Of a DNA stretch of 64,000 nt, positions 27,545-63,714 are shown in pieces. The position numbers were made by a program, and so were the translations under genes. The DNA comes from Vitis vinifera (taxonomy: Eukaryota > Streptophyta > Magnoliopsida > Vitales > Vitaceae): the NCBI RefSeq assembly GCF_030704535.1, contig NC_081816.1, forward strand, positions 9,412,001 through 9,476,000, read 5' to 3'. Each line of letters opens with the position of its first letter. Within the stretch, counting starts at the first letter, position 1. The notes under the pieces were generated by a model. That model saw only the letters and a program-made list of their open reading frames with translations. It was not told the origin of the DNA and ran no database searches.

Positions 27545-30500
27545 CTAGTGAGCCAATGGGAACTCTATGAGAATGATGAAGGATGATCCCTGTGCCTCTC
27601 TGAGATACTGAACCGTGCCGTTCATGATCTTCACAAGCTTTTGGTTGATGTATAGGCCAAGACCTTCCCTTGATACACCCTGGCTGTGGTGAAACATCTG
27701 TTGGATCAAGTCTTCTGGGATCCCAGGTGCTGGATGGGCAATCCTGCCATTATAACCAGTATCGGATTCAATGTTTTATGACATATGGGGATATTTAGAA
27801 ATGTAAATGACAAATACCACATCTACTCACAAGAAGAGAAAGTATATGGGAAGAGACCATAATCCCCACATGCAGGTAGGAGAACTTGAACCCGAGACTT
27901 CTAGTTAATTAGAGTTTTGATACTATATTATGCTATTAATTTTGTTTAAGCTATGTAGAACAGCAGGCCAAGTTGGTGAAGTATTAGATCATTCGTAGGG
28001 AAAGATAAAAACATATTGAAAGGTTTAAATGAGAATTACCGAAATTCAAGATGTACAATGTGAACCTTTGTCCCTATACACTCCCTTCTTGGAATTACTC
28101 TGAGTGCAACTGATGATCCTTCAAATGCAGGGGTGAAGAGAAGCGCATTTGTTAAGAAATCTGAAAGGACTTGTTGAAGCCTCAAGTTGTCACCATACAA
28201 AAGCATGGACGACACTTCAGCAGGTGAATCATAGATGATCTCCACCCGACGCTCCCGGCTCAGAATCATCGCTTGACTTATGACAACCTCCAAAACTTCC
28301 CCTAGGTTAAACTCACCAGAATTCAATTCCATATAGCTGAAAATGGGTATCACATGGATCAAATGTTGTTCAAACATTTCCAAAAGTACAAGGAAGAAAG
28401 CAATAAAGATACAATGCAAGAAGGTTAGCTGCTAATGGTGCATGCCATGAATAAAACAACAAAAGGAAACAAATAAAAAGGAAAATGCAACATAGCATGA
28501 TTTCAAATACACTGATTCTTATATAAGATACATAAAGAAATAAAATATACAAGTTAATCAGGAAGAAAAGACCATCCAAAGACCATAACAAATAAATTTG
28601 CTGCATTACTCAAGCAGATAGACAAGAAATGATGAACATCCTCAAGAAGAGTGCATGGGGTTGATTATTATCAAATTGTGTTAACTATATTAGGTTTCTC
28701 AGTTTTGTGATTCAATAAACGGTCTAACCTGCTTCCTTTCTTTGTAGGTTTATGTTTTTTTTCATAGCTGATGTTATTAGAGTGGCAGTCATATCAAGCC
28801 AACCATTTGGATCAGCAAGATAAATCCTGCTGGATCACTTCAGCCTCTGCCAAAAAGCTATTATCTTCCTCTAAAGGCATAAGATCTTAAAAACATTCTA
28901 CTGATTCAATGATGCCCCTTAGCATTCTTTAGAAATGTATCCCAACCATCCTCGCACTGTTCTATTTTCAATCCCAACAGTCCAAGTTCTAGAGACGAAC
29001 AAGAATATGGTTTCCAAAACATTTTATCAAATGTTTGAGATGATTTGAATTATTTCACTCAAAATAATTCAAATATCATCAGACTTCTAGGAAAGAACTC
29101 ATCATGGGTCACATCTACAGCTGCTTCATGCAGTTAACATCTATATTAGCCGTTTCATTGATGGCAAGAGGGAAAATTGCTTAGCAATAACCTTAAGTAT
29201 GTAAACAAGCATAGAAATAAACACTACAGTTGAAAGACCATACCATTCCTCAATGCTCTCGAGATCAGTGTCATCAACGATCTTTGTTAATTGTTCTTGA
29301 CACATCATGCTTGTCCTCAGGAATTTTTTCTGGTCTTGACTTAGCTCAGATGAGTCCATCAGATTCTGAATGAACATTATTCCATTTAAAGGCTTCCTGA
29401 TCTGCTGACGAATATATGCCAATTTCTTGAGGCTATCAGCTGCAGCCTGTTCCGATATTCTCTGCACCTGCATGGCGTGTTGAAGTTCAGGACTAGCCAC
29501 GTGCAAAAAACACAAAACCCCAGTGATCTTTCCCTCTGCATCAGTCCTTTTGTTTGCAGAAAGTAATGCTTCAATGTATTTACCGTGCTGATCAAAGAAC
29601 CCAAATAACAATTTCTGTGCATCCTGACCTGCAATGGCTCCATTTAGTAATATCCTGAGCTTGGTTAATGTGTCATGATCTTTAACCTGACAACCAAAAT
29701 TATTGACCGTAAAAACCTCCCCGAGAAGCATCCTATCAGTGGCTTCTTCTCTCTTCAGACCAGACAAGTTTTGCATTGCATCATTCCATTCCAAGCATCG
29801 ACCATGCTCGTCCATCATAAAAATGGGAGGAATTAGTGCAGATGGGTTCCGCACAATTCCAACATAATCACCTTGGATACGAGTATATTTGTCCATAACC
29901 ATCTTTTGCCCTGTGATATCTTGCCCAACGAAGCAAACCCCTACGACATTATCCTTTATGTCTCGGCTACAACATGCATTAACTACCAATATAACAGGGC
30001 CATTGTTTTCCTGGGGACCAAATGTCTTGAGTTTGATCTCAACATTTTGCTCTTCTATACCTGCCATTTACTGTGAAATCAGATTGAGATCCCTCATGTA
30101 TGTCTCAAAAAGAACAGAAAAATATAAAGAATGATGTACAGAAGTGGGAGAGGTGGAACTCAACAAGCAAAGTTCAATTATTTTGAACTTCAAATAGTGA
30201 TGTTCGTAATAGCAGAAAGTTCAATTGACCAAAGCTACGCTATCTGCCTTCTTCTTCATAAGTAAATAAATATGACAATAAAAAAATGAGCATCACAAAG
30301 GGGAAAACTATGATGTCTGCCTTAATTTGACGAGCTGGGCATGTAGTGGGTACAAATCTAGAATAAATTATACAACTACTCACAAGAGCAAAGGATGTAG
30401 TTCCATCTCCTTAAAAATAATTTTCATGAGATTGGCACAAGCGGCATTCATGCAAATATAAAGTCAAGCCCAAGCAGTGAGCCTGTTTAGTCTATTATGT

Positions 30501-32876
30501 TTAATATTCAGAAGCGTGAAAAAAGCCCATGTATATACACCTTATGCCAGATGCTCATATAACTTGAAAAACTCAACCTTCTACCGAGCAATATATTTCT
30601 TATTCCCTACATATAAGTGTACAGGTAAAAAAACATCCAACAGAAAAACTATCTGATCATGATCAAGTCACACATTTAAACCTAAGATTGAAAAAAAAAT
30701 GTTCAGAGGAACAAATTCAAAACAAACCTAGCACCACTGTACAAATTTCTGAGTGTAAAAGACAAAGATTTGCAGATATGACATAATTCGCAATTAATGA
30801 GCTAAAAGCACAAAGGTAAAGTTTAGTGACACCTTGCAATGCCATGGAGAGCATCTTCTTCACCATGTCGGCTGAATCATTCTCAACAAGATTAATTAAG
30901 GGCATGCCAATGGCTTGCTGCATGATCAATCCTGTTAGCTCGGCCGCTTTGTTATTCCACCCATTTATGCAACCAGCGGCATCAACAGCCAGGATGGGAA
31001 CAGAAGCTGTTTCAATAAGACGAACCATTTCATTTGTGACTATGCGCAAGTCATCAGCCATTTTTATGCTGGCATCAACTGATGGAACATTCACAATCAT
31101 TTTAGAGTCATCTGCGCTCTTATCCTGCAAGGAGCCTCTCAATATCAGCTGCAAGGAATGGATGGCATCCATTTCCACATCTTCCCAAGGTAGGCTCCGC
31201 CGCTTTACCACCTCCAGAAAAGCCTTGAATGAGGATCTAGGGTGCATCTTTCTCCCATCATCCTTATCATCAGGATCATGTTTTGCACCACCCCACTTAA
31301 TCTCCTTTGCCGTGTGGGACCGGAACCAAAAAAGGAAATCGTTTGAATTAATCTTAACGGCAGCAATCCCACAAACTGCATCACCAAGAACTGAGGCAGC
31401 TGGGTAGCCAGCTTCCATCAGGCTATCAGTACTTAAGCCTGTACTCCCACTGTGGTACTCAAGAAGCCACTCAACTATATCTCTAATCTGTGCCTCTGTA
31501 GGGGTGACCCCAAGCAACCAAAATTTCTTCTGGTAGTAGAGCGCAGCTCCATCACACCTAACCAGGTCCATCACATTGGGTGATTGAGTAACAATTCCTA
31601 CAGGTGCATCTCTAAGGAGCATGTCGCAAAGCACGGTTTGTGTCTGCAAAATATGCTTCTCCTTCATTTGGGCAGCTAGCTCCATTTCCTTGCTAATTTG
31701 TACACCAAAAACTTGAACCAAAAACTCACAGGCATACCTCAAAGGGAACGGAACAAACCTAGGGCTTGTATTATGGCAAACCACCAAGCCCCACAATTTT
31801 CTTCCCTTTTGTTGCTCACTCTCTGTATCATCATCTTCCTCATTGATGGTCACAGACATCACAAGCGATGCAACCGAACCCATATTCGCCATGTACTGTG
31901 CATGACACCCATGAGGAGATCTCAATGTGGATCCACAGAGGCTCAATGGCTGAGCTAATCTTTTGTTTTGAATAACTTTAACAGGCGGGGCCAAACAATC
32001 ACATATCATCCTAACCTTATTTTTCATGAAGAGGAATCTTGAAGCTTGTGGTATATCAGTAGCTGGGTAATGCAAACCAAGATAGGGTTCCAAGTCGGGT
32101 TTGCGGCACTCTGCAATAACTTCCCCATGCTCATCCTCATGAAATTTATACACCATCACTCGATCATAACCCGTTAATTCACTCGCTTCCTTGACTAACA
32201 CGTCACATAACAGTGATATATTCCCACTTGGCAAAGATTGCAATCTTGAAATGGCTTTGGCAGCAAGCTTATATGACTTTAATGCCCCAGCCGCTGTAAC
32301 TGGGACATCAGCTGGATTCACTGGCTCCAAATCTATAATTAACCCTACATCAATTCGGTGCAGAATTGCATAGAAGGGCTTACCGGAGTTTCTACAATGG
32401 ACCAATATGGGATTGAGGAGATTGACTTCCCCAAAATTGGCTGCTTTCTGCAAGGCAGCTGCCCCCGAGGATCGAAAGAGTGTCCGAACATCTGTTCCAA
32501 TTGCCAAGGCCTCTTGCTGCTCAATGCTTGGAACAGCATGTGGGGCTAAGTCCAACATTTCAGGGGCATTTTCGCTGTAGGCAAGAACTGTGAGATTCTG
32601 CTCATCAACTGCAATCATGCAGCCAAATGGTTGGATCAGGTTTCCCCTCTGCATCTTTTGGAGGTAAGCTGAGACCGTAGAAGAGGGGACATCACTAGTG
32701 GAACTTGAGATATTGAAGTCAACTGAAGCAGAGTAATCAAAATGACGTTCAGACTCCTCAAAGTTCACATGAAGCTGGGCATCAATTGGGGTCTGTGCCA
32801 CCACACGGGCGCCATGTTTTGATCGAGCAGAGCTGCTCCTAGAACAATTCGTCTTGTTAGTAGACTTTGAGGACAT
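27545..32876 (-). CDS. PHYC: Phytochrome C
   Basis: Red/far-red photoreceptor carrying a covalently bound phytochromobilin; cytosolic as Pr and partly nuclear after light activation. Exons 30833-32876, 29244-30060, 28040-28336 and 27545-27743 splice in phase (GT/AG) to 1118 residues, the normal phytochrome length and intron pattern. The Ser/Arg-rich N-terminal extension ([20 protein letters not shown]) is followed by PAS/GAF/PHY photosensory domains. The chromophore cysteine is Cys324 in [16 protein letters not shown], and [13 protein letters not shown] and the PHY tongue WGGAKHDP are visible. Two PAS repeats follow (about 620-890) and then the histidine-kinase-like module, which ends in EFPLAH. 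Overall sequence is closest to PHYC as I recall it. An in-frame ATG 15 nt upstream exists (32891), but the MSSKS start fits the family. A 5' UTR intron (about 32909-33779) is inferred from splice consensus. Confidence 0.96.
27830..27960 (-). repeat. Possible tRNA-derived SINE fragment in PHYC intron 3
   Basis: On the minus strand GTCTCGGGTTCAAGTTC resembles an RNA polymerase III B box. It is preceded by AGTATCAAAACTC and followed by CATGTGGGGATTAT, an order seen in plant SINEs. No clear A box, poly-A/T tail or target duplication was delimited. Confidence 0.3.
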
Positions 32877-34550
32877 CTTTTCTTCTCCCACCAGCTCCTT
32901 TAATCAATCTGATCCATGAAACTGGAGTAGTAATACGAAACCTTCCACCATAAAATCCCAAAGTATATACTCCAAGAAGAAAAAAAAAACAGAAGAATAT
33001 CACAGAAGAGAAAAACCAAAATCAAATCCAAAGCCCAAACAAATTAGTTCCTCTCTATCAAGTAGAATCTACGGGACCCAGGAATCATCATGAAAGGGGT
33101 AATAGTGAAACCCACCACAAAACATAAAAGAAATCCCTTTCCTTTATCGCCAGAGCCCATGTAGCCATTCAAAGCTCGATAAAAGGAAGTTGATAATTCA
33201 CAGAGTACGCATGATTCGATTCTCAACAGATAAAGGCACCAAAGTAAAGGGAAAGAAAAGGGTCAACAAAAACGGATTCTCCAAGAACATCAATAAAGTG
33301 GGTTCTCCTTATTGCCTCCAAAAAGTCCCTCCATAAACAATGAAGAACTACTACCCAGATAGTCAAATCATACAAACCCAGATTGCATAACTTCCAAATC
33401 TATTGAGACGCATCCACAGAATCGCTTTGCATTGCCTAATTCCACTAAGCAGCAACTTATATCTCCGTTCTCTTCAGTACCTCCATAAGCCCCTTTGGGC
33501 CCTCAAGAAACAAAACCCAGATAGATACGCCAAAATCACCAGTGACCCATTACTCAAATTCTTCAACCCTCACACAGAATTCAAGTAATCAAAACCGTTT
33601 CTTCCAACCCATACCTGAAACGTTCATACCTGAGGGGATAAAACCTCAAACCCCCAAACCAAAACAGAACACAGAGCTCCAAAAAGACCGAATAAATAAC
33701 CAAAAGAAACTGACAGAGTTGCGAGTGTGTAACTGACCATCAAATTTGCAAGACATGGATCAGCAACACGTGAACCCACCTGATTTCTGAAGCTGACCCA
33801 TGAACCCTGAAGCTCGAAACTTGCAACCAAAATTAAACAAAGATGAATCTGAAGATTGAAGCCACTATCTTCTTCTCATGGAATTTGTTTCATAGTGTGT
33901 TTTTCTGGTAAACTACTTTCCAATTTTCCACTCAATAGTTAAACGAGGAGACTTGGATTGCTTACTTCAAATGAGGCAACGGAGAGGTGAATCCTTGTCG
34001 GATATGGCCTTGGGAAAGAGACTTCTACACTGTTGAGTAATACGCTCCAACCTCATCAATCTTCCTCTTTTGCTTCATGAAAACGATAAATTGAGCATGA
34101 ATGGCTTTGAATTTATTACGCACAATTACATCACGTTTGTTTGGATTGTAAGAAAAATAATTCAACTTCTCAGACCTTTTCAGTTCTGCTGCTTCATCAT
34201 AAATGTTTTAAATATATTTTTATTTTATTCTATAATTTATAATGAAATTCACACCCTAAAACAAAATTCTACTTGCATTTATTAGTGATGAATAAGTGGT
34301 AAGAATTAAAGTTTTTTTAAAAGAAATTAAATAAAAATAAAATATTTTCTATTACTTAAAATATCCTTTTTTATAGAAATTATGTATAATTTAAATTTTA
34401 AAAATTATTTTAAATATATATTAATTAATTAAAATAATTAAAATTATTTTATTTATATAATATGCTATAAAAAAATTATAAATAGTGAAGGAATTTCTAG
34501 AAGTATGTGTATAAAATTATTAAAACATACGTCTACCGTACGTCTTCTTT
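32877..34550. other. PHYC 5' leader, inferred leader intron and proximal promoter
   Basis: On the minus strand an acceptor TGGATCAG (ending at 32909) and a donor CAG/GTGGGT (33780/33779) would remove an 871-nt leader intron, as is common for phytochrome genes. The leader exon would be upstream of 33780, with transcription probably starting around 33850-34000. 34200-34500 is AT-rich with no recognised gene. Confidence 0.45.
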
Positions 34551-37123: not shown

Positions 37124-38095
37124 TCATATACATTCACAGTTTGCTCCATGAATTGTTAGTATTTCTGAATGATTTGATGATGTGACCACTATTATTTGTT
37201 TGACAGATCTCCATGAAATAGTAGTACCATTACAATTAAACAAATATCCTATTTGTGACCTACCTTTATGTGGATTTGAAAGATATCGTGCATCTGCATA
37301 TCCAAACAATTGTTGCTTTGATTCCCTTGAGTAAAATAGACCTATATCAGTAGTTCCATAAAGATAACATAATATATATTTGATACCATTCCAATGTCTT
37401 CGAGTTGGAATAGAATTGTATCTTGCTAATAAATTGATAGAAAAAACAATGTTTGGATGTGTATAATTGGCAAAATACATAAGTGCACTTATAACACTAA
37501 GATATGGTACTTCAGGACTAAGTAATTCTTCATCTTTTTTGTAAGGACGAAATGAGTCATTTTTCACATCAAGTGATCAGACAACCATTGGAGAACTTAA
37601 ATGATGCACTTTATCCATATAAAAACGCTTCAAAACTTTCTTAATGTATGTTGATTGATGTATTAAAATTCCATTTAGAAAATGCTCGATCTGCAGGCCG
37701 AGAAAAAATTTTGTTTTTCCAAGATCTTTCATCTCAAATTCATTTTTCAAGTAATTTGTTGTTCTTATGAGCTCTTCAGGAGTTCCAACAAGATTTAAGT
37801 CATCAACATACACTGTAATAATTGCAAATCCGGTTTTTGATTTCTTAATGAGGATGCATGGGCATATAGGATTATTCACATACCCTTCTTTTAGCAAGTA
37901 TTCGCTAAGACGATTGTACCACATGCGTCCAGATTGCTTTAATCCATACAAAGATCGTTGTAACTTGATTGAGTACATGCTACGAGGCTTTGTACTATTT
38001 GCTTCAGACAATTTAAATCCTTCAGGGATTTTCATGTATATATCATTATCAATGGATCCGTATAAATATGTTGTAATAACATTCATGAGACGCAT
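37124..38095 (-). pseudogene. Copia reverse transcriptase / RNase H remnant
   Basis: Minus strand. 37577-38095 carries the copia RT core (SLYGLKQSGRMWYNRLSEYL, catalytic YVDDLNLVG, LGLQIEH). After one in-frame stop just below 37580 the same frame continues in 37124-37567 with the connection/RNase H region (ADARYLSNPHKGRSQIGY, near the usual ADADW motif). The N-terminal part of RT upstream of 38095 is disrupted. Non-functional. Confidence 0.88.
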
Positions 38096-38159: not shown

Positions 38160-40354
38160 GAGTAAGTTTCCTAGTAGTCAATAGCAGGTCTCTACGAGAA
38201 ACCTTGTGCTACTAATCGCACTTTATATCTTATGATCTCATTATTCTCATTACGCTTTCGTACAAATACCCATTTGTACCCAACATGCTTTACATCTTTA
38301 GGTGTTTGGACTACAGGTCCAAAAACTTCTCGTTTTGTTAATGAGTTTAACTCTGCCAGTATAGCTTCTTTCCATTTTGATCAATCATTTCTATATCGGC
38401 ATTCTTCCATATTTCGTGGTTCGAGATCTTCATAATTTCTTTTGATATCGGAGGCTACTTGGAAAGAAAAAATATTGTTAATAATAATATTATTTCAATT
38501 CCATTTTTCTCTCGTGTGTACATAACTTACTAAGATCTCACAATTTTCAGGTACCTATGCCTCTTCAGGGGTTTCTTGTTCAATATGTGCTCTTCAGGGG
38601 CTTTTTGTATTATTTTTGCCTCTTCTGGGGCTATAGATTTATCAATTTTAAATTGATCAGTCATTTTGATGGTCTCTTCTAGAGTGCCAAGTTTTTCTTG
38701 GGTTCTCATTTTTTGGGGAGTTACATCATTTGAGCAGACAGGTTTACCACGCTTCAGGCGTATCTTAAATTCATTTGTTAATTGTCCTACATGGACATCA
38801 ATTCGTGCTAGAGTATTTGCAGCCGGGATATATGACTTTGTCACTTTTTTGTATCAATGAATGCATCTGGTAATTGATTTGCAAGATTTTGCGAATGAAA
38901 GATCCTTTGAACTTCTAGTTCACTTTGATTTGTATGAGGATTAGGATGGGTCATAGTAGATGTCTTCCAACTAATTTCTCATCATTCTTCAGGAATCGAA
39001 TTTTCTCTCCCTAATGACGAGAAAACATTCTCATTAAAATGAAAATCTACAAAGCGGGTTGTAAAAACATCGCCTGTTAAAGGTTCAAGATATCTTATGA
39101 TAGATGGAGAATCAAAACCTACATAAATCCCAAGTCTTTGTTAGGGACCCATTTTAGTGCGTTGTGTAGGTGCAATTGGTATATATATTGCACAACCAAA
39201 TATTCATAAATGAGAGATATTTGGTTGTTTTCTAAGCACAAGTTGTGAAGGGGAGTATTCATGGTAAGTTATAGGTCGAATACGAACTAAAGTTGTAACA
39301 TGCATAATAGCATGTCCCCAGGCGGAAGTAGGTAATTTGGTTTTCATTAGTAATGATCGAGCTATTAATTGCAGACGTTTGATGAAGGATTCTGCTAAAC
39401 TATTTTGGGTATGATTATGAGCAACATGATGCTCAATATTTATCCCTATTGACATGTAATAGTCAATGAATGTTTGAGAAGTAAATTCGCTAGCATTATC
39501 AAGACGTATTGTCTTAATTGGATAATTTGGAAATTGTGCTCGTAATCTTATTATTTTTGCAAGGAGTCTAACAAAGGCAATGTTACGTGTAGAAAGGAGA
39601 CAAACATGTGACCACCCAATAGAAACATCTATTAAGATCATAAAATAACGAAATGGTCCACATGGTGGATGGATAGGCCCACATATGTCCCCATGTATTC
39701 TTTCTAAAAGACTAATGACTCATATATGACTTTAGTAAAAGATGGTCTGATTATCAATTTACCTTGTGAGCAGGCAGCACATGAGAATTCATTGGGTGAA
39801 AGAATCTTCTGGTTCTTTAGTGGATGCCCATGTGAGTGTTCAATTATTCAACACATCATTGAAGACCTTGGGTGACCTAACCTGTCATGCCAAAGGACAA
39901 AAACTTTTAGGTCGTTGAACTTCTGGTTCACGACAACATATGATTCAATAGGCTTTATAGTTGTATGATAGAACTCAAAGAAGAAAGTCGAGAGTTTTTC
40001 CATTATAAGCTTATGGCCAGATATAATGGAAGTAATGTAAAGATATTCTACATTATCTTCATTCATAATTTCAATATGATATCCATTTCTATAGATATCT
40101 TTAAAATTGAGCAAATTTCTTTTGGATTTACTAGAATATAAAGCATCATTTATATGGAATCTATTTTCATTTGGTAGTGTTATGTTTGCTCTTCCAGAGC
40201 CTTCAACTAAGTTTGTAATACCATATATGGTACTTACATTAGCTTTTATTAATGTCAATTTAAGGAAATATCTTTTATCTCGAAAAATTGTGTGCGTGGT
40301 TGCATAGTTTACAAGACATACATCATCCTTATTCATCTTGAGACTAAATAACAC
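38160..40354 (-). pseudogene. Copia gag-pre-integrase, protease and integrase remnants
   Basis: Minus strand. 39848-40354 holds the end of protease, where the usual catalytic Asp of the D-S-A-T-T-H type motif reads Asn (CLVNYATTHTIF). It also holds the GAG-pre-integrase zinc region (LWHDRLGHP). 39204-39641 is the integrase core (LIDVSIGWSHVCLLS, IKTIRLDNASEFTSQTF, HHVAHNHTQNSLAESFI). The stretch 38160-39200 is the degraded integrase/RT linker with stops and frameshifts. Confidence 0.85.
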
Positions 40355-43229: not shown

Positions 43230-44395
43230 ATGCCACTAAGGAGACCTGCATCTTCCCAAAACAGTCAGGCTAATGATGATATACCTCCTCCACCTGAGGC
43301 TTTGCCCCTTATGAGTACTGAAGGGCTTTATAGATATTTAGGGACTTTGGTTAGCTTGGTTGAGCGTCAGGCTAGAGCTATTGGAAATAATGGTCAAGGA
43401 CAATCCTCATCTACTAGAGGTAGCTCCTTTGACGACTTTAAGAAGTTGGGTCCCCTTACTTTTCTGGTACTTCAGATCCAATAGAGGCAGAGGCTTGGAT
43501 TATGAAGATAGAGAAATTCTTTGATGTCATTGATTGTTCTGAGGAGCAAAAAGCCTCATATGCAGCATTTATGCTAGACAAAGAGGTAGACCATTGGTGG
43601 CGCATGACTAAAAGGCTTTTGGATGATCAGGGACCTATTGTTTAGAGACAGTTTAGGGAGGCTTTTTATAAGAAGTATTTTCCTGATAGTGTTCGATGAC
43701 AAAATGTGGGAGAGTTTGTCCGTTTGGAACAGGGGAATTTGACTGTGACCCAGTATGAGGCTAAGTTTACCGAACTATCACGTTTTGCCCCACAGTTGAT
43801 TGCTACAGAGGAGGAAAAAACAATAAAGTTTCAGGATGGACTGGAGCCTTATCTGAAGAATAAGATATCAATTCTGAAGCTTAGTGTTTATTCAGAGGTG
43901 GTAGACAGAGCCCTTATTATAGAGAAGGATAATGAAGAGTTTCACCAGTATAGGGAACAACAAAGGAAGAGGAATAGAAATGATGGTGCTCATAGTAACC
44001 AAGCACATAAGAGGTCTGCTCCAAGTAGAAATCAGAATAAAGGAAAAACGACACAAAATTTAGATGGGATTTGTGAAACTTGTGGCAAAAAGCATGGGGG
44101 TAGACTATGCTATAGAGAGACAAGAGCTTGCTTTGGTTGTGGAAAACAGGGACATATGGTTCGGGATTGTCCAGAGAGTAGGAAGTTTGTATTTGGGAAG
44201 CCTAAGGAGGAGAATAAAGAAGATAGACAAAAACGCAGGGCTCAAGGGCGAGTATTTGCTATGACTCATAGAGATGCTCAAGCTACGTCTGATATAGTGA
44301 CAGGTACTCTTCGAATCCACACCTTATTTGCTAGAGCCTTAATTGATCCTGGATCAACACACTCTTTTGTTTCTGTATCTTTTGCTGGTTTGTTG
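43230..44395 (+). pseudogene. Gypsy gag and protease remnant
   Basis: Starts MPLRRPASSQNSQ at 43230. A frameshift near 43465 and stops near 43644 (TAG at an expected Trp) and 43698 (TGA) break it. The capsid region continues in 43706-44395 (LEQGNLTVTQYEAKFTELS). The CCHC zinc knuckle CFGCGKQGHMVRDC is intact, and the aspartic protease motif ALIDPGSTHSFVS is present, with Pro at the position usually Ser/Thr after the catalytic Asp. Confidence 0.88.
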
Positions 44396-44397
44396 GT

Positions 44398-47300
44398 ATG
44401 CCGATTGATAACATGGACTTTGATTTATTTGTTGCTACTCCTTTGGGAGATTTTGTTGTGGTTAATAAAATAATTAGAGATTGTTGTGTGATGATTGGGT
44501 ATAGAGAGATGATAGTTGACTTAGTACTTCTTGAGTTCCGGGATTTTGATGTGATTTTGGGAATGGATTGGTTAGCTTCATACCATGCATCTGTTGATTG
44601 TTTTGGGAAAAAAATGACGTTTAGCATTCCTGGTCAGCCTGATTTTAGTTTTGAGGGGAAGCATGTAGACAAACCATTGCGTATGATCTTAGCATTGCTG
44701 CTAGTTCTTTGCTTAGGAAAAGTTGTCAAGGCTTTTTGGCTTATGTTGTGAATGAGGAAAGTGATTTAAAGTTGAAAGACATACCCATTGTAAGGGACTA
44801 TCCTGATGTCTTTCCAGATGATCTACTTGGCTTGCCACCAGAGAGGGAAGTGGAGTTCACCATTGATTTGGCACTAGGGACAACTCCTATCTCTAAGGCC
44901 CCTTACAGGATGGCACCTATGGAGCTTAAGGAGTTGAAGATTCAACTTCAGGAGTTGTTAGATAAGGGCTTCATTAGGCCTAGTGTTTCACCTTGGGGAG
45001 CTCCTATTTTATTTGTAAAGAAGAAAGATGGATCTATGAGACTCTGCATTGATTATAGAGAGTTGAATAAGGTGACGGTAAGGAACAAGTATCCCCTTCC
45101 TCGGATTGATGATTTGTTTGATCAACTTCAGGGTGCATGTGTGTTCTCTAAAATTGATCTTCGGTCTGGTTATCATCAGTTAAGGGTTAGAAGTGAGGAT
45201 GTACCTAAGATTGTTTTTCGAACTAGATATGGACATTATGAGTTTTTGGTTATGCCTTTTGGTTTGACTAATGCACCTGCTACTTTTATGGACTTAATGA
45301 ATAGGGTATTCAAGCCCTATCTAGATTAGTTTGTGATAGTTTTTATAGATGATATTTTGGTGTACTCAAAGAGTAGTGAGGAGCATGAACGCCATTTGAG
45401 TATTGTATTGCAGACTCTCAGAGATAAGCAATTATATGCTAAACTAAAGAAGTGTGAGTTCTGGTTAGATAAAGTCTCTTTCCTTGGGCATGTGGTGACC
45501 AAGAATGGCATCTTTGTTGACCCTGGAAAGGTAGATCCTATGTCAAATTGGAGAAGACCTAATACCGTGACAGAGATTCGAAGTTTCTTAGGACTGGCTG
45601 GTTATTATAGGCGGTTTATTGACGAGTTCTCTAAGATTGCCCTACCTTTGACCAGGTTGACTCAGAAAAGGGTTAAGTTTGAGTGGTATAATGATTGTGA
45701 ACGTAGTTTCCAAGAGTTAAAGAACAGATTAGTGACAGCTCCTATTTTGACTATTCTTTCAGGCTCAGGAGGGTTTGTGGTGTATAGTGATGGCTCTCGT
45801 CAGAGTTTGGGTTGTGTTCTTATGCAACATGGGAAAATTGTAGCTTATGCTTCTAGGTAGTTGAAGCCTTATGAACGAAATTATCCTACTCATGATTTGG
45901 AGTTAGCTGCAGTGGTTTTTGCACTTAATATTTGGAGACATTTTTTTTTTTGGTGAAACTTGTGAGATATTCACAAATCATAAGAGCTTGAAGTATTTAT
46001 TTTCCCAAAAGGAGTTGAACATGAGACAGATGAGGTGGATTGAACTACTTAAAGACTATGACTGCATTATTCAATATCACCTAGGGAAAACGAATGTTGT
46101 GGCTGACGCCTTAAGCAGGAAATCTGTTGGTTCTTTAGCAGCTATTAGAGGTTGTCAGAGGCAATTATTGGGAGATTTGAGGAGTTTTCAAGTACATATG
46201 AGAGTTTTGGACTCGGGAGCTCTTGTGGCGAACTTTAGAGTGCAACCAAACTTAGTTGGGAGAATTAAGGCCCTACAAAAGAATGATTTGAATTTAGTGC
46301 AACTTATGGAAGAGGTTAAAAAGGGCAGTAAGCCTGACTTTGTTTTATCAGATGATGGGATTTTGAGGTTTAGGACTAGACTTTGTGTCCCAAATGATGG
46401 AGACTTAAGGAGAGAGCTTTTGGAGGAAGTTCATTGTTCTAGGCTTGCGATCCACCCAAGAGGGACAAAGATGTACAAAGATTTGAGACAGAATTATTGG
46501 TGGTCAGGTATGAAGCGAGATATTGCGCAATTTGTGGCTCAGTGTTTGGTGTGTCAACAAGTGAAAGCTGAGCATTAACGACCAACAGGGTTTTTGCAAC
46601 CACTTTCTATTCCCGAGTGGAAATGAGAACATATTACTATGGATTTTGTGACTGGGTTACCAAGGACCTTAAGGGGCAATAATGCAATTTGGGTGATTGT
46701 TGATCGATTAACAAAGTCTACTCATTTTCTACCTATGAAAGTTAATTTTTCTATGGATCGTTTGGCTTCTCTTTATATTAAGGAGATTGTGAGAATGCAT
46801 GACATACCTATTTCTATAGTATCTGACAAAGATCCTCATTTCACTTCCAGATTTTGGCATAGTTTATAGAAAGCATTAGGTACTAAGTTGAGTTTTAGTA
46901 CTGCTTTTCATCCGCAGACTGATTGTCAATCAGAGAGGGTAATTCAGGTCTTGGAAGATTTGTTGAGAGCTTGTGCTTTGGACCTAAAAGGTAATTGGGA
47001 TGATTATTTGCCCCTAGTGGAGTTTGCCTATAATAATAGCTTTCAAGCTAGCATTGGGATGACAACTTTTGAGGCGTTGTTGGTAGGAGATGTCGATCTC
47101 CTGTTTGTTGGGATGATGTTGAAGAGAAGAAACTTTTGGGGCCTGAACTTGTGCAGTTGACTATTGAAAATGTCTCTTTAATTAAGGAAAGATTGAAAGC
47201 AGCACAGAGTAGACAGAAGAGTTATGCTGATAATCGCAGACGAGATTTGGAGTTTGAGGTGGGTGATCATGTTTTCTTGAAAGTTTCACCTATGAAGTCT

Positions 47301-53507: not shown

Positions 53508-54821
53508 TCAACTCGTTGCAGATGGAGATGGATAGTCGCGCAAGTGATACATGTAAGCAAAATTCAAGCACAATTCACGATCCCTTTTGTCCCCCCAGCC
53601 TCCCCAACCTTTGAACCCAGCTTGATACCCAGGCTGTTTCTTATACACATGCACTCCCCATTCTGGTTTGATGTTGACAACCTTATCAATGTCTTCTACA
53701 TCAATCTTCACCGAGCCATGATCAATGCAAGCACCCCTCTCCCCCTGGCCCTGATGAAGACCACACTTCCCAAAGTGAACAGCAGTAGTCCTTGGCCCAC
53801 GTAGTGTGTAAACAGGGCGACCAAATGAGGGGAAAACTGTAGCCCACATTGTTATATCCCAGTTGTACTCATCAAAAGAACAAAATTCTGTAGCCTTCCT
53901 ATGGATTTTCCTCCACACAGTCCGATTAAAGGCATAGCCGATATTTCCCATCCTCTCAGCAATCAGATTCTCCCATCCTTCTCCCTTGGAGTTCACATCA
54001 CATGGTGCTAAATTCACAGCATAGCAATCAGGACATTTCTTTGGCTTCAGAGCTGTGAGTAGCTGCAGGCTGCGATATGCATTAGGGAAAATGAAGTGGT
54101 CTTCCTCTATGAAAAGAATATGACCCGAGTGACCCCGAGTCTCCTCCAATCCATCCCACACTGTGTTCATCATCCACCACCAATGATGCTTCAATGACAC
54201 AATCTTTGGTGACCTATGGTTCCCATACTGATCAGGATTTCCTTCACAATGTTTCTTTCTCGGGTCATCCTTATCCTTGCAGTCTGTTGCTGAGATACCA
54301 GGAAAGCTATTGGGAAAGACATGGGGAGAGTAGGAAGCAAATATCTGTTTCACTTGGCAGAACTCAATGCCTTCCACAATCTTGTTCATCTCCTCAAAAT
54401 ACCCATCATGGCTGACAATAAGTAAAGTTTCACTAATCCCCACTACCTGAGAGAGGCTCTGAACTACAACTCGGAGATACTGAGGTCGATTGTGAACATA
54501 TAGGACAATAGTTATATGATCCTTAGCTAGATTTGGATAAAGATCTATGTTTCTAGGAGGCATCTGGTTGAGCTTGTCCAATCTAATTGACAATTTATTC
54601 TGTTTAGGAAGATTAAGTATTTGTCTATAATGGGAGTAGCTATCATTCAATTTGTAGCCTTCATCTACTTCTTCATCCTGAGGCCCATCAACAAAACTTG
54701 AAATTGAATTCGTTCTAAGGAGAAAAATCAACAGAAAAACGCCTAACAAAGTAATCAAAACCACAGCCAAGAATCTGCGAAGAGCTGCATATCTGATTCT
54801 GGGTTTCTTGTTGGAAGCCAT
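53508..54821 (-). CDS. GNTII: Alpha-1,6-mannosyl-glycoprotein 2-beta-N-acetylglucosaminyltransferase (GnT-II)
   Basis: Golgi type II membrane enzyme that adds GlcNAc from UDP-GlcNAc to the alpha-1,6 mannose arm, completing biantennary complex N-glycans. Intronless, 437 residues from MASNKKPR; an in-frame ATG 18 nt upstream (54839) is possible, but MASNK gives the normal short cytosolic tail. A single membrane span is at about 17-36 (FLAVVLITLLGVFLLIFLL). The lumenal GnT-II (MGAT2 family) domain starts near HITIVLYVHNRPQYLR. The metal/nucleotide-sugar EED motif is at 239-241 (FIEEDHF). WWWMMNTVW and the Cys-rich ECSFDEYNWD-like and GKCGLHQG segments are typical. No breaks. It faces the plus-strand gene at 57050 across about 2.2 kb. 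Confidence 0.95.
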   Translation of the reverse strand: MASNKKPRIRYAALRRFLAVVLITLLGVFLLIFLLRTNSISSFVDGPQDEEVDEGYKLNDSYSHYRQILNLPKQNKLSIRLDKLNQMPPRNIDLYPNLAKDHITIVLYVHNRPQYLRVVVQSLSQVVGISETLLIVSHDGYFEEMNKIVEGIEFCQVKQIFASYSPHVFPNSFPGISATDCKDKDDPRKKHCEGNPDQYGNHRSPKIVSLKHHWWWMMNTVWDGLEETRGHSGHILFIEEDHFIFPNAYRSLQLLTALKPKKCPDCYAVNLAPCDVNSKGEGWENLIAERMGNIGYAFNRTVWRKIHRKATEFCSFDEYNWDITMWATVFPSFGRPVYTLRGPRTTAVHFGKCGLHQGQGERGACIDHGSVKIDVEDIDKVVNIKPEWGVHVYKKQPGYQAGFKGWGGWGDKRDRELCLNFAYMYHLRDYPSPSATS

Positions 54822-56848
54822 GAAGCCGACAACACACAAAGCCTCAAAACCGTTCTGGGGCAGTTATGGTTGCAGCTTCTACCGCTTCAAAGTTCATAAA
54901 AAAAACCAGAAAACCCACCATTCCAAGGAAAGAAAAATCAAAACTTGATAATCAAGCAGTCAATAATAAGAAAAACAGCACCAACCCGTTTGAGAAGAGA
55001 TTGAATGAGCAAAAGGGTAAGCGTCAAAAACCTCCAAAACTGCCCTCACAGTGAGATTGAAGCATCCAAAGCTTCATCAGATTGAATCCCTGAACTCAAA
55101 CCTGAAACCCCAGCCCTCAGATGCTGCAAATCAAATGAACAAAAGAAACAAGGTCCTCTTCTATATGCATATCACAGATCAGAAGAGGAAAAACCCCAAA
55201 TGGGTACTCAAAAAGTCTGATCTTTAAGCTTTGAAACGTGATAAATCTGCGAGATCAACGGAGGAGATTACATGGTTGACCGAGTCTGCACAGCAGAAAA
55301 CAGACTAGGAAGACTCCCGGGATACTTGTCAGCAAAAGACTTTGAAAATGGAAAATTGTAGTTTATCTGATAGTTTAATAAGAGTTTGGAGTTCTAAATC
55401 CGGAAACTTCAAGAGAAGCCCTGAATGCAAAATAATTTCATAATGATATGGGGATTCAATCCATCAATCAGATTCCATCTCTGCATAGAAATAATCTCTT
55501 TTTTTTTGGAATTTTTTTTATCAAATTGAAGGCTGCAGCTTCATAATATCAAATTTTGATTGATAAGTGGTTGACATATGGGCAAGTGACAATGAAAAAA
55601 AAAAAAAAAAAGGTTAAAAAGTGATGAAAGAAATGGCATTTCTCTTATTAAAAATATTTCACCACCATGATTTATTTTAATGAATTTAAAATTTTAAGGT
55701 AATAAATTTGATTTTTATTTTTCAAATTTATTATATCAATCATAATTAAAGAAATGTTAGTTTAGAGAATTAATTAATTAAAAGGAATGAAAAAGTTAAA
55801 AAGTAATCACTTTTTTTTTTCATACAAATGTGATTTATTTATAAGTAGCTTTTAAAAGAAAATATTATTTTTGTAAAAAATAAATAAAAATATTTTAATA
55901 AAAAATAGTTAGATTTTTAAATTGAGAATTATTTCATTATTTTACATTGTAAGAAAGAGAGAGAGCATAAAGCAAGGGATGATGGAATAAGATAAAAGTA
56001 AATTTTATTTATTAAATATAAATTTTTCATGATGTTTTGGTGCAAGTGGCTAGTAGGAATTTTCATAAAGAGGGAAAAGAAAAAGAAAAAGAAAAGATAA
56101 AAATGATGAGGGGGGCATTAGCATTTTCTTGAGTGGAATGAGAGGAGAATACAATGATGGGTCAATCGGCTTACCCATCAAGGAACCAGCAAAATTGGTA
56201 GTATGGTTCATTGTGTGACTTCAAAGTTCAAAGCCACCCACTTTACCTTACCTTCTATGTGTTCTCCCTTGCTTTCCATGGAAAATGGCCTTGCGAAAAT
56301 CATGTTCCTAATGATACATTTCTTGTCAAAGAAGGTGATGTGGTGGAATAATGGAAAGTTTGTTGGTAAAGTTGAGTTTGGTTTCAAAGGGTTCCTCCTC
56401 ATGAGAGAAGTGCTATTTTTGAAATAAATGTTCATAACAACCTCTTCTTGCCATGTACTCCACCTTCCAGATTTCTTTCAAAATATTTGTTGAAAACTAC
56501 ATCTTAACTAAACTAATATTAATACAAATTTAGAGATCACATCTTAAAGTTACATATTTAGAAACTGTATTTTAAAATTGTAGTTACTAATCTCTATAGA
56601 ACCCCTATTTCAAACTAATTTTAAAAAATAAAAATCAAGTGCTTTCAACCATACTTTTTCAAGGTGTCAATGAGCTGCATGCTGTTTGATTGATGAAAGG
56701 CTCTTTTTTCACCCAAAATTCTTGATTTATGATCTAAGGCCAATGGGAAGCTGTCAGTTCATTGACACTTGATGCAACCCCATATGGAGCAGTGTAGCTG
56801 TGTCCACTGACCCACATATGAAGATGCTGGCTCAACACCACATATATC

Positions 56849-57049: not shown

Positions 57050-57643
57050 ATGGCAGCCAAAGTGGCTCTCTCTTCTTGTTTTTGCACTAGACTTCCACTC
57101 CCTTCCAAATCATCCTCACCATCTTCTCTCACCCACACCCCCACTTCACCAAAGAAAAGGGCACATCATTTTAGCATTCATGCAAAGCTCGGTAAGAGTC
57201 TTGAACTCTTCATCCCCCCATATTCAATTTTGTTGGTTTCTTTCTTGTTTGCATTTTGTTTTTGTGTTTTGGGTCAAAATGAGGCTGAGATGTCAAACTT
57301 TATGGAGATGGGTTTGGTGGTTTTAGGAGGAGGAGATGGAGAGATCAAGCAGGGAGGGAAGAAGAAGTTCATAACTAGAGAAGAAGAACCAGAACAGTAA
57401 GCCTTCAACTATCATCACTTTTCTTTCATCAAAACATTGAAATATCAATTCATATTATATTATATCAGTCATCAACAACAGAGTTTTGTCAACTGTAGGT
57501 ATTGGCAAACAGCAGGAGAAAGGGAAGGGGAGAACCCCATGAAGACCCCCCTTCCTTACATTATCATATTTGGTATGTCCACCCCTTTTGTTATCTTAGC
57601 CATTGCCTTTGCTAATGGTTGGGTTAAGGTACCTGTTCGATGA
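57050..57643 (+). CDS. Small plastid-targeted single-pass membrane protein
   Basis: Three exons inferred from splice consensus and phase: 57050-57191 (CTCG/GTAAGA), 57327-57396 (TTTTAG/GAGG, CA/GTAAGC) and 57499-57643 (TGTAG/GTATTG), giving 118 residues. Residues 1-45 are Ser/Thr/Pro-rich with few acidic residues (VALSSCFCTRLPLPSKSSS), typical of a chloroplast transit peptide. A Gly/Lys/Glu-rich linker precedes EEPEQYWQTAGEREGENP and a C-terminal membrane span (PYIIIFGMSTPFVILAIAFA) ending GWVKVPVR. I do not assign a biochemical function. From memory it resembles small unannotated Arabidopsis thylakoid proteins next to GnT-II (At2g05310). The exon 2 acceptor is the least certain border. Confidence 0.75.
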
Positions 57644-58021: not shown

Positions 58022-61007
58022 TTAGCCTCTGCGAGGCTTGTATAGTACTATTGTGACATGTTTTGTGCAAAACCGATGTGTTGAACTAAGTGCCACCACA
58101 TTCTGGTTCATTTTCTGGATGTACAAATGATTTAAAACGAAGGTTTGAGGTCTTGTTAAAGACTGGGAACTGTCCATGGAGAACGATGGGCCATTTAATG
58201 GTGTGATTTCAGCTTGTGGAGGTAGCTCAGGTGGCTCCCTTTCAAAATCTTGAGCTACAAGCTGTGGGTTGTTATAGCTTGACCCTGGGGAAGAAGGGGA
58301 TTCAGGGTCCTCTGGAACATAATTCTGCACAGTAGATAAACTAATTTCTAAAATAACAGTTGATGTATTCAAACAATCAAAAGCATCTAGGAGGATCGTG
58401 AATACTAAGGATCAAATTACAAGAAAATATATAGCTTCACCCAGTTGTAAGGATCTTTCATGCAATGGAAGAAATCCTGCTGAAACCACACTAAATGAGA
58501 GAAATGTTCATCAAATACTACGGCATTTTTCACATGTAAATGCAACAAACCAAGTTATTTCTGCTGTATGGAGGGTTTTGATCATAAGTTCTTAGTATTT
58601 TTCCTGAAATTTATATGATGAGAATGTGCTAGAGGAGTGGTGGAAACTATCAGTATGTTCTCTATAACCCAATAGGTTGCAGGTGCTGGCATCAAATTTC
58701 ATCTGTTTAACGCATTCACAACCAAATGGAGCCCTAAGATTGTCGCAAGAGGAGTATTAAGATAGCTGTTTTCTGGGAATTTGTTTAGGACTGAACCCAA
58801 GTGCAGGCATAATCCAGAGCCTCACATCCCTGGCCAGGGTATGGAGTGCAAGCAACAGCAAAAGCTTCCCTCCTCAGACAAGCAGCCTAATTTACTTAGA
58901 TGTCAAGGTTGGCCTCGCTTCAAGGTGAAGCCTTAAAGGGGGTAAGCTTCAAAAGCGTAAAAAGGACTTTCCCATCACTACAGAATGCCTCATTGTTGCC
59001 AGTAGATTAAGATTATTTATCAACTAGAGGCTTTACCATAAATCTGTGAAGTTCCTGTAGGATGTTGAATAGCCAGTGGGACTAGAAAGGGGCCCAAGAA
59101 AAAATTTGGTATTCCAGAAAAGATCTTCTTGCCGATTGTATCCAGATATTTCATCTCATTTTCAGGTAAAACTTGCATAAACTAGAATAGAGAGGCATTG
59201 AAACAATGCAGCAGAGAGAGGCATCTTTCCACAAACAATAGTTCTAAGAAAAGGATGCAACGATGATATTTAGAATGAGAAGCATAAGTTTACCTTCAAG
59301 TCCAACACGTTATAGGCATACCCAGTATTATCATAGACCAGAGGCAATTCAGGGGTATTTCTCCACTGTCCATCAACAATAAATCGGAAGTGGTAAATGC
59401 CTAATGGAAGCACCTTTGTAATACTGAACTCTTTGCCTGATCCAGCCAACAGCTCTCTGAGACGGAAAATGATCCATGTTAGTGCTGAAAGCAAAACATG
59501 AGACAACTTGAAAGAAAAAACTTAGAACATATCCTTGTACTTTGATTTCCAGTCATCCCATGATCCCTCAACAGCTACTTGCTTGCCACCATAGTTCCAT
59601 CTGATCTGTATAGTCACCCACCTCCCATGGAGCATGCCCTCATTTTCTGTTGTATTCCCCACCAGTGCACGGCCATGGATCTGCACACTCCTAACCGGTC
59701 TTTGTGAAGGAACCATCAGGGGCTGGAAAAGGAATGAGAAAACAAAATGACTATGGAGTTTTGTATAAATGTTTGTGTTCGTTTCTGCCTAATGAAATGA
59801 ATACTCTGCAGCTACCTGCCAAATTCCACTGAAAAACAGGGCTACCGTTCCTTTTGTAGAGAGCATCTCACATCATATCGACCCGAAAAGGGCCAAAAAA
59901 TTAGGTTTCCAGAGGTAGAATATCACAAATTTTCATGGGTAACTTACAAATTGAAAGTAAACTTTTCTTCAAAGAAAAATTCATCAAGCAAAAGAGTTTT
60001 AATAACTATGGGAATCACAAACTCAAACTCCCTACAGATCAGGGACTGATAGTTACACAAATGAATGTTAGAACTGCCTGTCTAAACACCTGAACGATAC
60101 CGATATACTTCTAAATTAAGACATCAACACTAAGAAAGACTAAATATAGAGATAAAAACTGACCTGAGGAGGGAGCATTATAGCTGTGAGAGAAGGCCCA
60201 AGGTTATGGGAAGGGGCCAAACACACGGATGTTGGAGATGCACCACGCCTAAACTCCACATATTGCTCACACCCTTGGAACTTCTTAATTCCAGAATGGC
60301 CTTCACCATTTATCCCACCACCAACATTGCCCATTACTGAAAATACATAGCCATCCAGTTAGGGCTAAAGGAGGGTTTTTGAAAAATACTTTATAAAACC
60401 AGTTTTTGTGAGCAAAAGATCAGTACCAAACATTAAGACAGAACAAACCAATTGGCTATGAATACACACCATGAAACCCATACTGTGAAAAGTCCATACA
60501 CTGATGGCCTTCTTCCCACTTCTTGACTCCAGAGTTGCCTTCTCCATTTCTTCCATGACTGACATTACCCTTCACTGAAAACTAAAACCCAGTTGGAATC
60601 TAAAGATTGTTTTTCAAAAACGCTTTATAGAAACAAAATTGAACAAGAAATCAATAGCAAAAAAACAAAAGCAGAAAATACCCTTTGACTAAGGGTACAC
60701 ACCATGTGCAGAGTTCATATACTGTTGGCACTCTTCAAACTTCTTGATTCCAGAAGGGCCTTCTCCATCTCTCCCACCATGAGGATTGCCCGTTCCTGAA
60801 AACAAAAATCCAGTTACCATCCAAAAGGATGATTTTGAAAAACACTTAACGGAAACAATTTCAAGAACAAACAAACCAAAAACATCATCAGAACAGACCC
60901 AGCGATTGTCAACACTCACCATGAGTTCCACCTGCAGAGGATTCCATAGACTGATCAAAATCTTCACACTCCTCCACTCCATCTTTCCTAGTACTAACAT
61001 TGCCCAT
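58022..61007 (-). CDS. SnRK1 (SNF1-related kinase) regulatory beta subunit
   Basis: The beta subunit scaffolds and localises the SnRK1 energy-sensing kinase. Exons: 60920-61009 (ATG at 61007), 60703-60795, 60470-60574, 60164-60336, 59541-59722, 59294-59456, 58022-58324. All are GT/AG and in phase, giving 368 residues if every exon is used. The CBM48/glycogen-binding-like domain is in exons 5-6 (QIRWNYGGKQVAVEGSWDDWKSK, FSITKVLPLGIYHFRFIVDGQWR). The C-terminal ASC domain (kinase/gamma binding) is NYVPEDPESP ... HVTIVLYKPRRG. The N-terminus MGN is a myristoylation signal. The first four exons are tandem homologous copies, described separately. Starting at the ATG of the fourth copy (60334) would give 272 residues, nearer the usual beta length. 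Whether this is beta-1 or beta-2 type is not settled. Confidence 0.88.
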
Positions 61008-61110
61008 CCCTGAAACAAAAACCCAGTTAGAATATTTGAAAAACACTTCACAAAAACAGTTCTTTTGAGCAACAAAAACAGAAACAGAACATACCCAAAA
61101 GAAAACAGAG
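60164..61110 (-). repeat. Four tandem copies of the SnRK1-beta N-terminal exon with intron
   Basis: Units of about 215-240 bp contain both exon and intron. Exon copies from upstream to downstream: 60920-61009, 60703-60795, 60470-60574 and 60164-60336 (the last extended at its 3' end). Each follows a TTTCAG acceptor. Three read GN...GR.GEG.SG(I/V)KK(F/W), and the first has a shortened GNVSTRKDG form. Copies 1-3 end CATG/GT. The methionine before GN is present in copies 1 and 4, but is ACG (Thr) in copy 2 and AAG (Lys) in copy 3. Introns share CAGTTAG...TTTTTGAAAAACAC...ACAG motifs, including the one before copy 1. Confidence 0.88.
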
Positions 61111-63714
61111 AAATCAAAGCAAAGTCTGTAAATTTCTGGGAGTTTGGTCACATAACCAAGTCATTAACAAATCACAAACACAAAAAGGGAAGAAGAGAAC
61201 CCAGAATTAATTAAATGAGGCGGTAACATTATATTATAGCTTTGTGTTGATAAGTGATTGATTGATGGAAAGTGCTATTTGTCTCTTTCCCTCTTTCCTT
61301 CTTTCTCTCCCTAAAGCAAATAATGGAAAGTGATTTTATTCTCCAATGAGTTTGGAAGATCCCTCCATCGTGATCATGGCCTGGTTTTCAAAAGGGAATG
61401 TTGCATTGGCATCATCAAAAGGAGAATTGCTGCAGCATTGCTTCTCTGCGGTCCATGCAGTTCCCACTCACAGCCCACCACGTGGTATGCTGTTTCATGA
61501 AGCTTTGAGAAAAGTAGTTGCAGAAGATCATTGCCCTTTTATGTGGGAGAATTTTAAAATTTTAATTTTTTTTTTTAGTGCAAGATCCTGTTTTTGAATT
61601 TAATAGACTCAATATTACCTAGATTTGGATCCCTAGTGTTTCATTTTGATTTTAGAAGCCCTCAGCTACTAAAAACATTTTATAGTCGGCTAAACTCGAT
61701 TTAGATTATGCAAAGTACTTCAAAAGAAAAATCGATTTTACAACTATTTTGATTTTCTTGTACTTTTCTTTTTGTTTTCTTATTTATTTTCTTTCCCGAA
61801 ACTTTCTAAGATGACATAAGGGTTAAACAACTTGGTTTTCAACTAATTCAATAGCATCTAAGGTTCTTAGACTAATCATACCAACTTGAACTAGGCTTAT
61901 TTATAGCTAATTTCTCCTCTGACCACTTGCTCCAACAGCTCAACTTAATTGAAGAAAAAAAAAAGTAATAATAATGTATACTATACAAGCCAAAATTTAG
62001 TTTGATATAAGACATGCAGAGTGATTAAAGTAGTTGTTCATATATAATAATGTAGATGGGTTCAAAGCATGGCCTTAACTTATTCTGTTGGATAACTTTC
62101 CCTCAGAACTATGTTCCATGGGAATAAAATTACAAGTTCCTTGAGCTCCAAATAGAAGAAGAAAAAGGGAACCTATACCCACAAACTGAACAATATTATG
62201 TAAAGGAATCCAAATTCCAAACCCCATGAGGTGGAAAGAGAAGACTTATGTGTATATAAATATGAGTGGCAGTTGGTTTGCTTTTTGCTACCCCTATGAG
62301 AAATAGGACACATAAAAAAGAGTACCAGGCATTCTTTCATAAAAAATGAGCTCCCAATCTACCATGCAAGGCCCTTTTCTATTTGGGTCCTGGAGTATCT
62401 ATCTATCTTCCCATGTGACTTGTCCACATTTTGTGGTTGTTGGGCATCATTTTGATGACTCCCAATGTGAAAAAGAGCTCATTGCTTTTGTGGGGAAAAG
62501 AAGTTTATAAACCAAATAATGGCCTTTTCTGGACAAAAAAATCTCATTGCCATCTAAACAAAAAGGAAAAGGGAACCTTCATGATCAGCACTAGAAGTCA
62601 CTTTCAAAGTTCTAAATGATCTTTGTTGTATGAGTTTGAATTCCATGAGATTAGTGAAGTATATATGAAGTGGACATCTCCTTTTGTCCATCCAATGAAT
62701 GATAACAAGCTCAAAAGTAATGGAGATGCTGAGCAAATCCTAGGCTTGCAATTTACTCATCTTGGGTCATTTTGCCTTTGAAAACAATGGTTGTGAGAAT
62801 CAAATGTGAGTGATTTTCTCTTCAAGAATCCTTAGCAGGAAGGTAAAGGGAAGAAAAATAGAGAAAAGAGAAGCCCACATACACTAAAGAAAGAGAGTTG
62901 GTCTTGAATAGAATCATATATTTTATATCTATAGGTTGGTAGTTAGAAGTTGGCCTCATCACATAGGAGGAAGATGTGACAAGGGGAAGAGCATCTGCCC
63001 TAGTCACCTTCAAAGGCCCACCTCCCATGGCAACATATTCTAATTGGGACAATTGTTTGGAGCCACAAAAATGTCCCTCAACTGATATGATCAATATATT
63101 AATGCACTAATGCTTTGTTTGTTTGCCGAGGAGACGGGGAAACCAATACCAAATTCAACAGATACAGTGCTTTTATCAGCATGAATAGAGGCCTGTCACA
63201 CACTGAAAATGTGTACTACTGCACATACAAGAAGCCAAACCAAGAAAAGTATATGTAGATGCAGACATCCTTGAGGAAAAAAATAGGGTGTTTGGCCTAA
63301 TTTTTGGGATTTTTCAAGTAAAATCCTTGTGGTTAGAATATAGTGCTTGGTCAAATATTCCAAGGCATTTGGAAAACCTCCTGGTTTCTTTGTCCAATGG
63401 CAGCCCAGACCTTTATGAACATGGGCCTATGTATAGTATCTCTGGATGCTAGCTAGTATGAGTGTTTTAATTCCCTTCCTGATCATCTCTCTGAGGACTA
63501 GAACCCTTAATCAAAAGCAAGATTTCATGGGCCTAGGTTTCTTCTTTTCTAAGGCTAGCAAGCCTCTTTTGACTCCATGTTTTTGTGCTGAAGAAGTTGC
63601 TTGTAAAGGAGTCATGAAAGAATGAAGGTGGGGGAAACATCAAATACATACATTTTCCTGGTAATGACTCATGAAGATGGTTCAAGTTTATGAGTTTGAT
63701 CCAAACTCAGTAAT
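61111..63714. other. SnRK1-beta promoter side and intergenic spacer
   Basis: A donor GG/GTATGT at 61095/61094 suggests a non-coding first exon upstream of 61095; an ATG at 61151 within it is out of frame with the main protein. The rest (61250-63714) is AT-rich; its reading frames show no domain and are not called. Confidence 0.45.

What the first reader, a model, noticed from the sequence alone, without database searches (positions are those of the whole stretch)
60164..61110. Quadruplicated, phase-preserving N-terminal exon in an SnRK1 beta gene
Seen: four tandem exon/intron units whose exons start and end in the same phase, so any combination splices in frame. Only the outermost copies keep ATG before the GN motif; the two middle copies have ACG and AAG, as expected once they became internal. 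The N-terminus of beta subunits carries the myristoylation signal that fixes SnRK1 at membranes. This array could therefore produce isoforms with one to four N-terminal modules, or different start exons with or without a myristoylated MGN. I know of no described beta subunit with such a module array.
Basis: partly seen in the sequence, partly recalled or inferred. Interest (0 to 1): 0.75.

Follow-up and report, generated by a model that had tools for sequence, protein, structure and literature searches.

The report
SnRK1 beta gene with quadrupled start-exon
In this plant, a regulatory subunit of the energy-sensing kinase SnRK1 carries four tandem copies of its first protein segment, and an independent public protein sequence has all four in one chain; this probably lengthens the flexible arm behind the predicted membrane anchor, while a switchable set of isoforms remains possible but unseen.

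Summary
The array is real and very probably expressed. On the minus strand an SnRK1/AMPK beta-subunit gene (58022-61009) has four related N-terminal coding exons: U1 61009-60920, U2 60795-60703, U3 60574-60470, U4 60336-60164. U1-U3 are phase 1-1, so any of them can be in or out without breaking the frame; U4 is not symmetric. A public protein (P0001, 368 aa) equals the product of all seven exons except at two residues. Its longest contig is 1,527 nt, the genomic ATG-to-stop span 2,986 nt, so it must come from spliced RNA. The form seen has all four modules: one myristoylation-type start plus about 96 extra residues, predicted disordered. No shorter isoform appeared, but 90% clustering could hide one. 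None of the 119 other homologues listed has two MGN modules. The array looks like intron gain by tandem duplication across an intron-exon border, as described in a potato gene (abstract). Verdict: a new variant of a known family; the isoform switch is unproven.

The parts
61095..61200 (-). probable 5' leader exon (3' end predicted at 61095 before GTATGT; its start is unknown, 61200 is arbitrary); holds a 16-codon upstream ORF starting at 61164
   Evidence: inferred from sequence; not covered by the protein evidence
61010..61094 (-). leader intron I0 (GTATGT...CAG), the probable parent of the intron copies
   Evidence: homologous to I1-I3, 76-79% identity; splicing inferred
60920..61009 (-). 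U1, 90 nt, phase 1 exit; ATG at 61007 starts MGNVST, the start of P0001
60796..60919 (-). intron I1 (GTGAGT...CAG)
   Evidence: U1-U2 join in P0001
60703..60795 (-). U2, 93 nt, phase 1-1, ACG in place of ATG
60575..60702 (-). intron I2 (GTGTGT...CAG)
   Evidence: U2-U3 join in P0001
60470..60574 (-). U3, 105 nt, phase 1-1, AAG in place of ATG
60337..60469 (-). intron I3 (GTGTGT...CAG)
   Evidence: U3-U4 join in P0001
60164..60336 (-). U4, 173 nt, full-length original first coding exon; MGN kept; exit phase 0
   Evidence: its MGN aligns with the MGN of all 51 homologues in alignment A2
59541..59722 (-). exon E5, first part of the CBM
59294..59456 (-). exon E6, rest of the CBM
58022..58324 (-). 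exon E7, AMPKBI domain and stop

Best explanation
One SnRK1 beta-subunit gene whose N-terminal coding module was multiplied by tandem duplication of a stretch running from the leader intron into the first coding exon. Each upstream copy kept the old acceptor and took a new donor (CATG|GTGNGT) from former exon sequence, becoming a short phase 1-1 exon. The form seen joins all of them (U1-U2-U3-U4-E5-E6-E7) into a 368-residue beta subunit. U1 gives the start and the myristoylation-type MGN; internal U2 and U3 have lost Met. The ~96 extra residues most likely act as a longer flexible tether between the lipid anchor and the CBM/kinase-binding part. Shown: gene model, open frame, family, residues across the six coding junctions. 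Inferred: leader intron, myristoylation, tether role, duplication history, and that full inclusion is the main form.
For: Gene model. P0001 (source 'lgn', 14 member sequences, 5 contigs, E 4e-255) is identical over 368 aa except N57D and N196S; its longest contig, 1,527 nt, cannot hold the 2,986-nt genomic ATG-to-stop span. CBM and AMPKBI domains. Introns I0-I3 are homologous. In 3 of 3 units the sequence after the donor resembles the orthologues' VSYHAH best in the frame that continues the old exon. Donors of U1-U3 match MAG|GTRAGT at 8, 7 and 7 of 9 places, against 8, 5 and 7 for U4, E5, E6, so no sign of skip-prone sites. No secondary structure is predicted before residue 188, and pLDDT block means over residues 1-180 are 36-51. 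Loss of ATG in U2 and U3 fits exons that are normally internal.
Against: The RNA evidence is a protein record, not reads; 'lgn' read as assembled public sequencing runs is my inference. Clustering at 90% may hide shorter isoforms. Constraint on the modules is weak: NG86 dN/dS between copies is about 0.33, 0.38, 0.59, 0.70, 0.79 and 1.5, and exon copies are no more alike than intron copies. U4 kept its ATG, which a purely internal module does not need. Low pLDDT may partly reflect the lack of aligned relatives for the array; the AMPKBI region was also modelled poorly. Post-donor similarity beat shuffles clearly only for U3 (27 of 2000; U1 103, U2 253) against 14 homologues chosen by a motif that itself begins V[SNCT].
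Confidence: 0.7

Rival explanations
1. Regulated cassette array: U1-U3 are alternatively included, giving beta subunits with one to four modules, each starting at the MGN of U1 or of U4.
For: U1-U3 symmetric in phase, all 8 combinations open; five combinations start cleanly at an MGN; U4 kept ATG in good context (GTAATGG) and matches the myristoylation pattern.
Against: Only the all-four form was seen. Donors and acceptors are not weak. Phase symmetry follows from copying one unit. Exon skipping is not the main mode of alternative splicing in plants; intron retention is (passages of PMC6581706).
Confidence: 0.2
2. Relic array: the extra modules are spliced in by default but do nothing; a neutral, lineage-specific lengthening of a disordered N-terminus.
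For: Weak constraint between copies; predicted disorder; no relative with the array found.
Against: All copies kept open frames, a 4-10% outcome in simulation at 20-30% divergence, and P0001 differs from the window at one of about 96 residues of U1-U3.
Confidence: 0.4
3. Only U4 is used and the upstream copies are untranscribed or decayed.
For: U2 and U3 lack ATG.
Against: P0001 contains all four modules.
Confidence: 0.03
4. Assembly artefact.
For: Tandem repeats can be mis-assembled (general knowledge).
Against: Copies differ at 28-40% of exon positions, and an independent record has the same order.
Confidence: 0.01

Closest known systems
Plant SnRK1 beta1/beta2 subunits (AMPK/SNF1 beta family)
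   Same: MGN start, CBM, AMPKBI; U4 corresponds to the usual first coding exon; the same small neighbour gene lies beside the beta gene in other eudicots (consecutive locus tags in Nyssa sinensis and Escallonia rubra)
   Different: Of 119 other homologues listed, 113 have one MGN ahead of the CBM, 6 none, none two; here four modules and about 96 extra residues
[quoted passage not shown]
   Same: Duplication crosses the border of the first intron and second exon; new donor comes from a formerly exonic segment; other splice signals inherited
   Different: Here three new introns and three in-frame coding modules; donor origin only moderately supported
Arrays of mutually exclusive exons (PMC6071210, search listing with start of abstract)
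   Same: Homologous tandem exons
   Different: There one and only one exon is included; the form seen here includes all copies

Membership tests
SnRK1/AMPK beta subunit | carbohydrate-binding module (AMPK1_CBM) | tested here: met
   PF16561, 90.7 bits, cut-off 26.8
SnRK1/AMPK beta subunit | C-terminal interaction domain (AMPKBI) | tested here: met
   PF04739, 79.5 bits, cut-off 24.3; solved AMPK beta chains match
SnRK1/AMPK beta subunit | N-terminal myristoylation signal (beta1/beta2 type) | tested here: met
   U1 and U4 starts match a PS00008-like pattern typed from recall; with a Met put in front U2 would match and U3 would not. The modification itself cannot be tested here
SnRK1/AMPK beta subunit | assembly with alpha and beta-gamma subunits | not testable with these tools
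   needs protein-protein assays
[quoted passage not shown]
   I0 homologous to I1-I3, exon halves homologous
[quoted passage not shown]
   expected frame best in 3 of 3 units; shuffles reach the score in 27 (U3), 103 (U1), 253 (U2) of 2000
[quoted passage not shown]
   0 of 119 other listed homologues has two MGN; protein level only, no relative's DNA compared
Alternatively spliced exon array | alternative inclusion in RNA | tested here: inconclusive
   only full inclusion seen; cluster members cannot be viewed

The most novel reading that the evidence does not exclude
A four-module, phase-preserving exon array lets this plant make SnRK1 beta subunits with different numbers of N-terminal modules from one gene, each starting at a myristoylatable MGN (of U1 or of U4), so that splicing sets the tether length and with it where the kinase sits.
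Probability: 0.18. Interest if true: 0.72.

Novelty: new variant of a known kind. Interest (0 to 1): 0.45.

Why it matters
N-myristoylation of beta subunits is reported to control where SnRK1 sits and how active it is, and how it does so is still under study (passages of PMC9664234). A natural beta subunit with about 96 residues inserted behind the predicted anchor is a ready test of whether distance from membrane to kinase matters. The array also looks like a clear plant case of repeated exon and intron birth by tandem duplication, with module-start codons lost in the internal copies.

Tried and rejected
Assembly artefact and 'only U4 used': rejected on P0001. Open frames as proof of selection: rejected as too weak, and dN/dS is not clearly below 1. 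Naming the species: not achieved. One search was partly meant for this; the neighbour gene's best named match is 80% (Corylus avellana, Populus trichocarpa), the 100% matches are unnamed ('lgn', 'ena'). My impression of a grape relative rests only on recall of phytochrome E and is not used as evidence. Searching the window's own genome: not completed. Rfam and tRNA scans of the window: nothing. Literature: seven searches, of which I saw the listed top rows only, showed no description of such an array; the library is open-access papers only. Papers: PMC9664234 and PMC6581706 passages; PMC4974935 abstract and outline; PMC6071210 search listing; nothing else opened.

Full report
Gene. The finding lies in the 5' part of one gene on the minus strand, coding exons at 61009-60920 (U1), 60795-60703 (U2), 60574-60470 (U3), 60336-60164 (U4), 59722-59541 (E5), 59456-59294 (E6) and 58324-58022 (E7). 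The joined product, 368 aa from the ATG in U1, has AMPK1_CBM (PF16561, 90.7 bits) and AMPKBI (PF04739, 79.5 bits) and matches solved AMPK beta chains. It is an SnRK1 beta subunit.

Array. U1, U2 and U3 are 90, 93 and 105 nt and phase 1-1; U4 is 173 nt, phase 1 in and 0 out. With U4-E7 kept, all 8 in/out combinations of U1-U3 are open to the final stop. The repeats are visible without any gene model: a 37-nt core in four copies and a four-way alignment at 70% mean column identity. Module-start codons are ATG, ACG, AAG, ATG.

Expression. The top hit of the protein search is P0001: 368 aa, E 4e-255, source 'lgn', 14 member sequences, 5 contigs, longest contig 1,527 nt. It equals the predicted protein except N57D (in U2) and N196S (in E5) and carries the predicted residues across all six coding junctions. 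Genomic ATG to stop is 2,986 nt, coding sequence 1,107 nt, so a 1,527-nt contig holding the whole frame must be spliced RNA or cDNA. That 'lgn' denotes assemblies of public sequencing runs is my reading. A search with the N-terminal 152 residues alone returned P0001 only, of 22 candidates, at E up to 10. A third search, with U1-U3 joined to the neighbouring gene's product and lengths from about 118 to 374 aa, again gave P0001 as the only protein of the array that I saw among the 120 rows listed of 244. So the four-module form exists; shorter forms were not seen. The limit is that each row stands for a cluster at 90% identity and members cannot be viewed.

Uniqueness. Of the 120 homologues listed (173 passed), P0001 is the only one with two MGN ahead of the CBM; of the other 119, 113 have one and 6 none (for 21 of the 120 the CBM anchor was not recognised and the first 150 residues were scanned). 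In an alignment of 52 of these, picked by me, the MGN of U4, not of U1, lines up with the MGN of all 51 others: U4 is the original exon.

Orthology. This rests on table columns, not on opened records.

Origin. The intron before U1 is homologous to the introns between units (76-79%), and those are 61-68% alike; exon copies are 60-72% alike. The likely history: a segment from the leader intron into the first coding exon was duplicated, the upstream copy kept the acceptor, and a GT in former exon sequence became the donor; the finished unit was then copied. In U1-U3 the sequence after the donor, read in the old frame, gives VSVDNR, VCTLSQ, VCIHSQ; the matching place in U4 reads VCLAPS, and 14 of 113 homologues read V[SNCT][YH]H there. 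This frame is the best of three in 3 of 3 units, but only U3 stands clearly above shuffles (27 of 2000; U1 103; U2 253), and the 14 were chosen by a motif that favours this outcome. The potato RdRp case is the same kind of event (PMC4974935, abstract).

Selection. NG86 dN/dS between copies is about 1.5 (U1-U2), 0.38 (U1-U3), 0.70 (U1-U4), 0.79 (U2-U3), 0.59 (U2-U4) and 0.33 (U3-U4) on 25-34 codons. Exons are no more alike than introns. Three unselected copies would all stay open in 4-10% of simulations at 20-30% divergence. Constraint is therefore weak or relaxed.

How it works. With U1 first, the spliced context is GGGATGG, and there are no in-frame ATGs upstream before a stop at -24. Leader upstream ORFs exist if the transcript starts far enough upstream. 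U1 (GNVSTR) and U4 (GNVGGG) fit a recalled PS00008-like pattern. Forms beginning with U2 or U3 would start out of frame. AlphaFold2 on alignment A2 gives no secondary structure before residue 188 and low confidence over 1-180; the CBM is confident, the AMPKBI region is not. The plain reading is a long flexible arm between one lipid anchor and the rest. Beta myristoylation is reported to hold SnRK1 out of the nucleus and to affect activity (passages of PMC9664234), so a longer arm could change reach or release; this is inference, and a functionless relic is a live alternative.

Verdict. New variant of a known kind.

Noticed in passing
57050-57640 (+): Small three-exon gene (118 aa, no Pfam match) ending tail to tail with the beta gene; copies in Fagus crenata and Hibiscus syriacus are named as an AMPK beta-2 subunit protein, probably an annotation carry-over from this linkage.
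   Followed up: partly
29141-32891 (-): Phytochrome gene (PAS_2, GAF, PHY, PAS, HisKA); by recall it looks like phytochrome E of a grape relative.
   Followed up: partly
60164-61009 (-): Every module holds a cysteine at or near the same place (EEC, EEC, HQC, QGC), where the single-module homologues I read mostly have EEG; possible acylation or chance.
   Followed up: no
61095-61330 (-): Leader region holds three upstream ATGs with short ORFs (21, 16 and 1 codons); whether they are transcribed is unknown.
   Followed up: no
43706-46578 (+), 37577-38095 and 39848-40354 (-): Retroelement fragments: RVT_1 at 44709-45326 and RVT_2 at 37580-38095; the rest by look of the ORFs.
   Followed up: partly
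16238-19519 (-): Long intronless PPR protein with DYW domain.
   Followed up: partly
11842-14086 and 21269-22111 (-): FAR1/MULE/SWIM pieces and a DUF659 protein, both of transposase kind (kind by recall).
   Followed up: partly
53508-54839 (-): Intronless MGAT2-type N-acetylglucosaminyltransferase II.
   Followed up: partly
protein P0122: An 'ena' protein of the neighbour gene reads on past the stop with two window TGA codons given as Trp, as if translated with another code.
   Followed up: no
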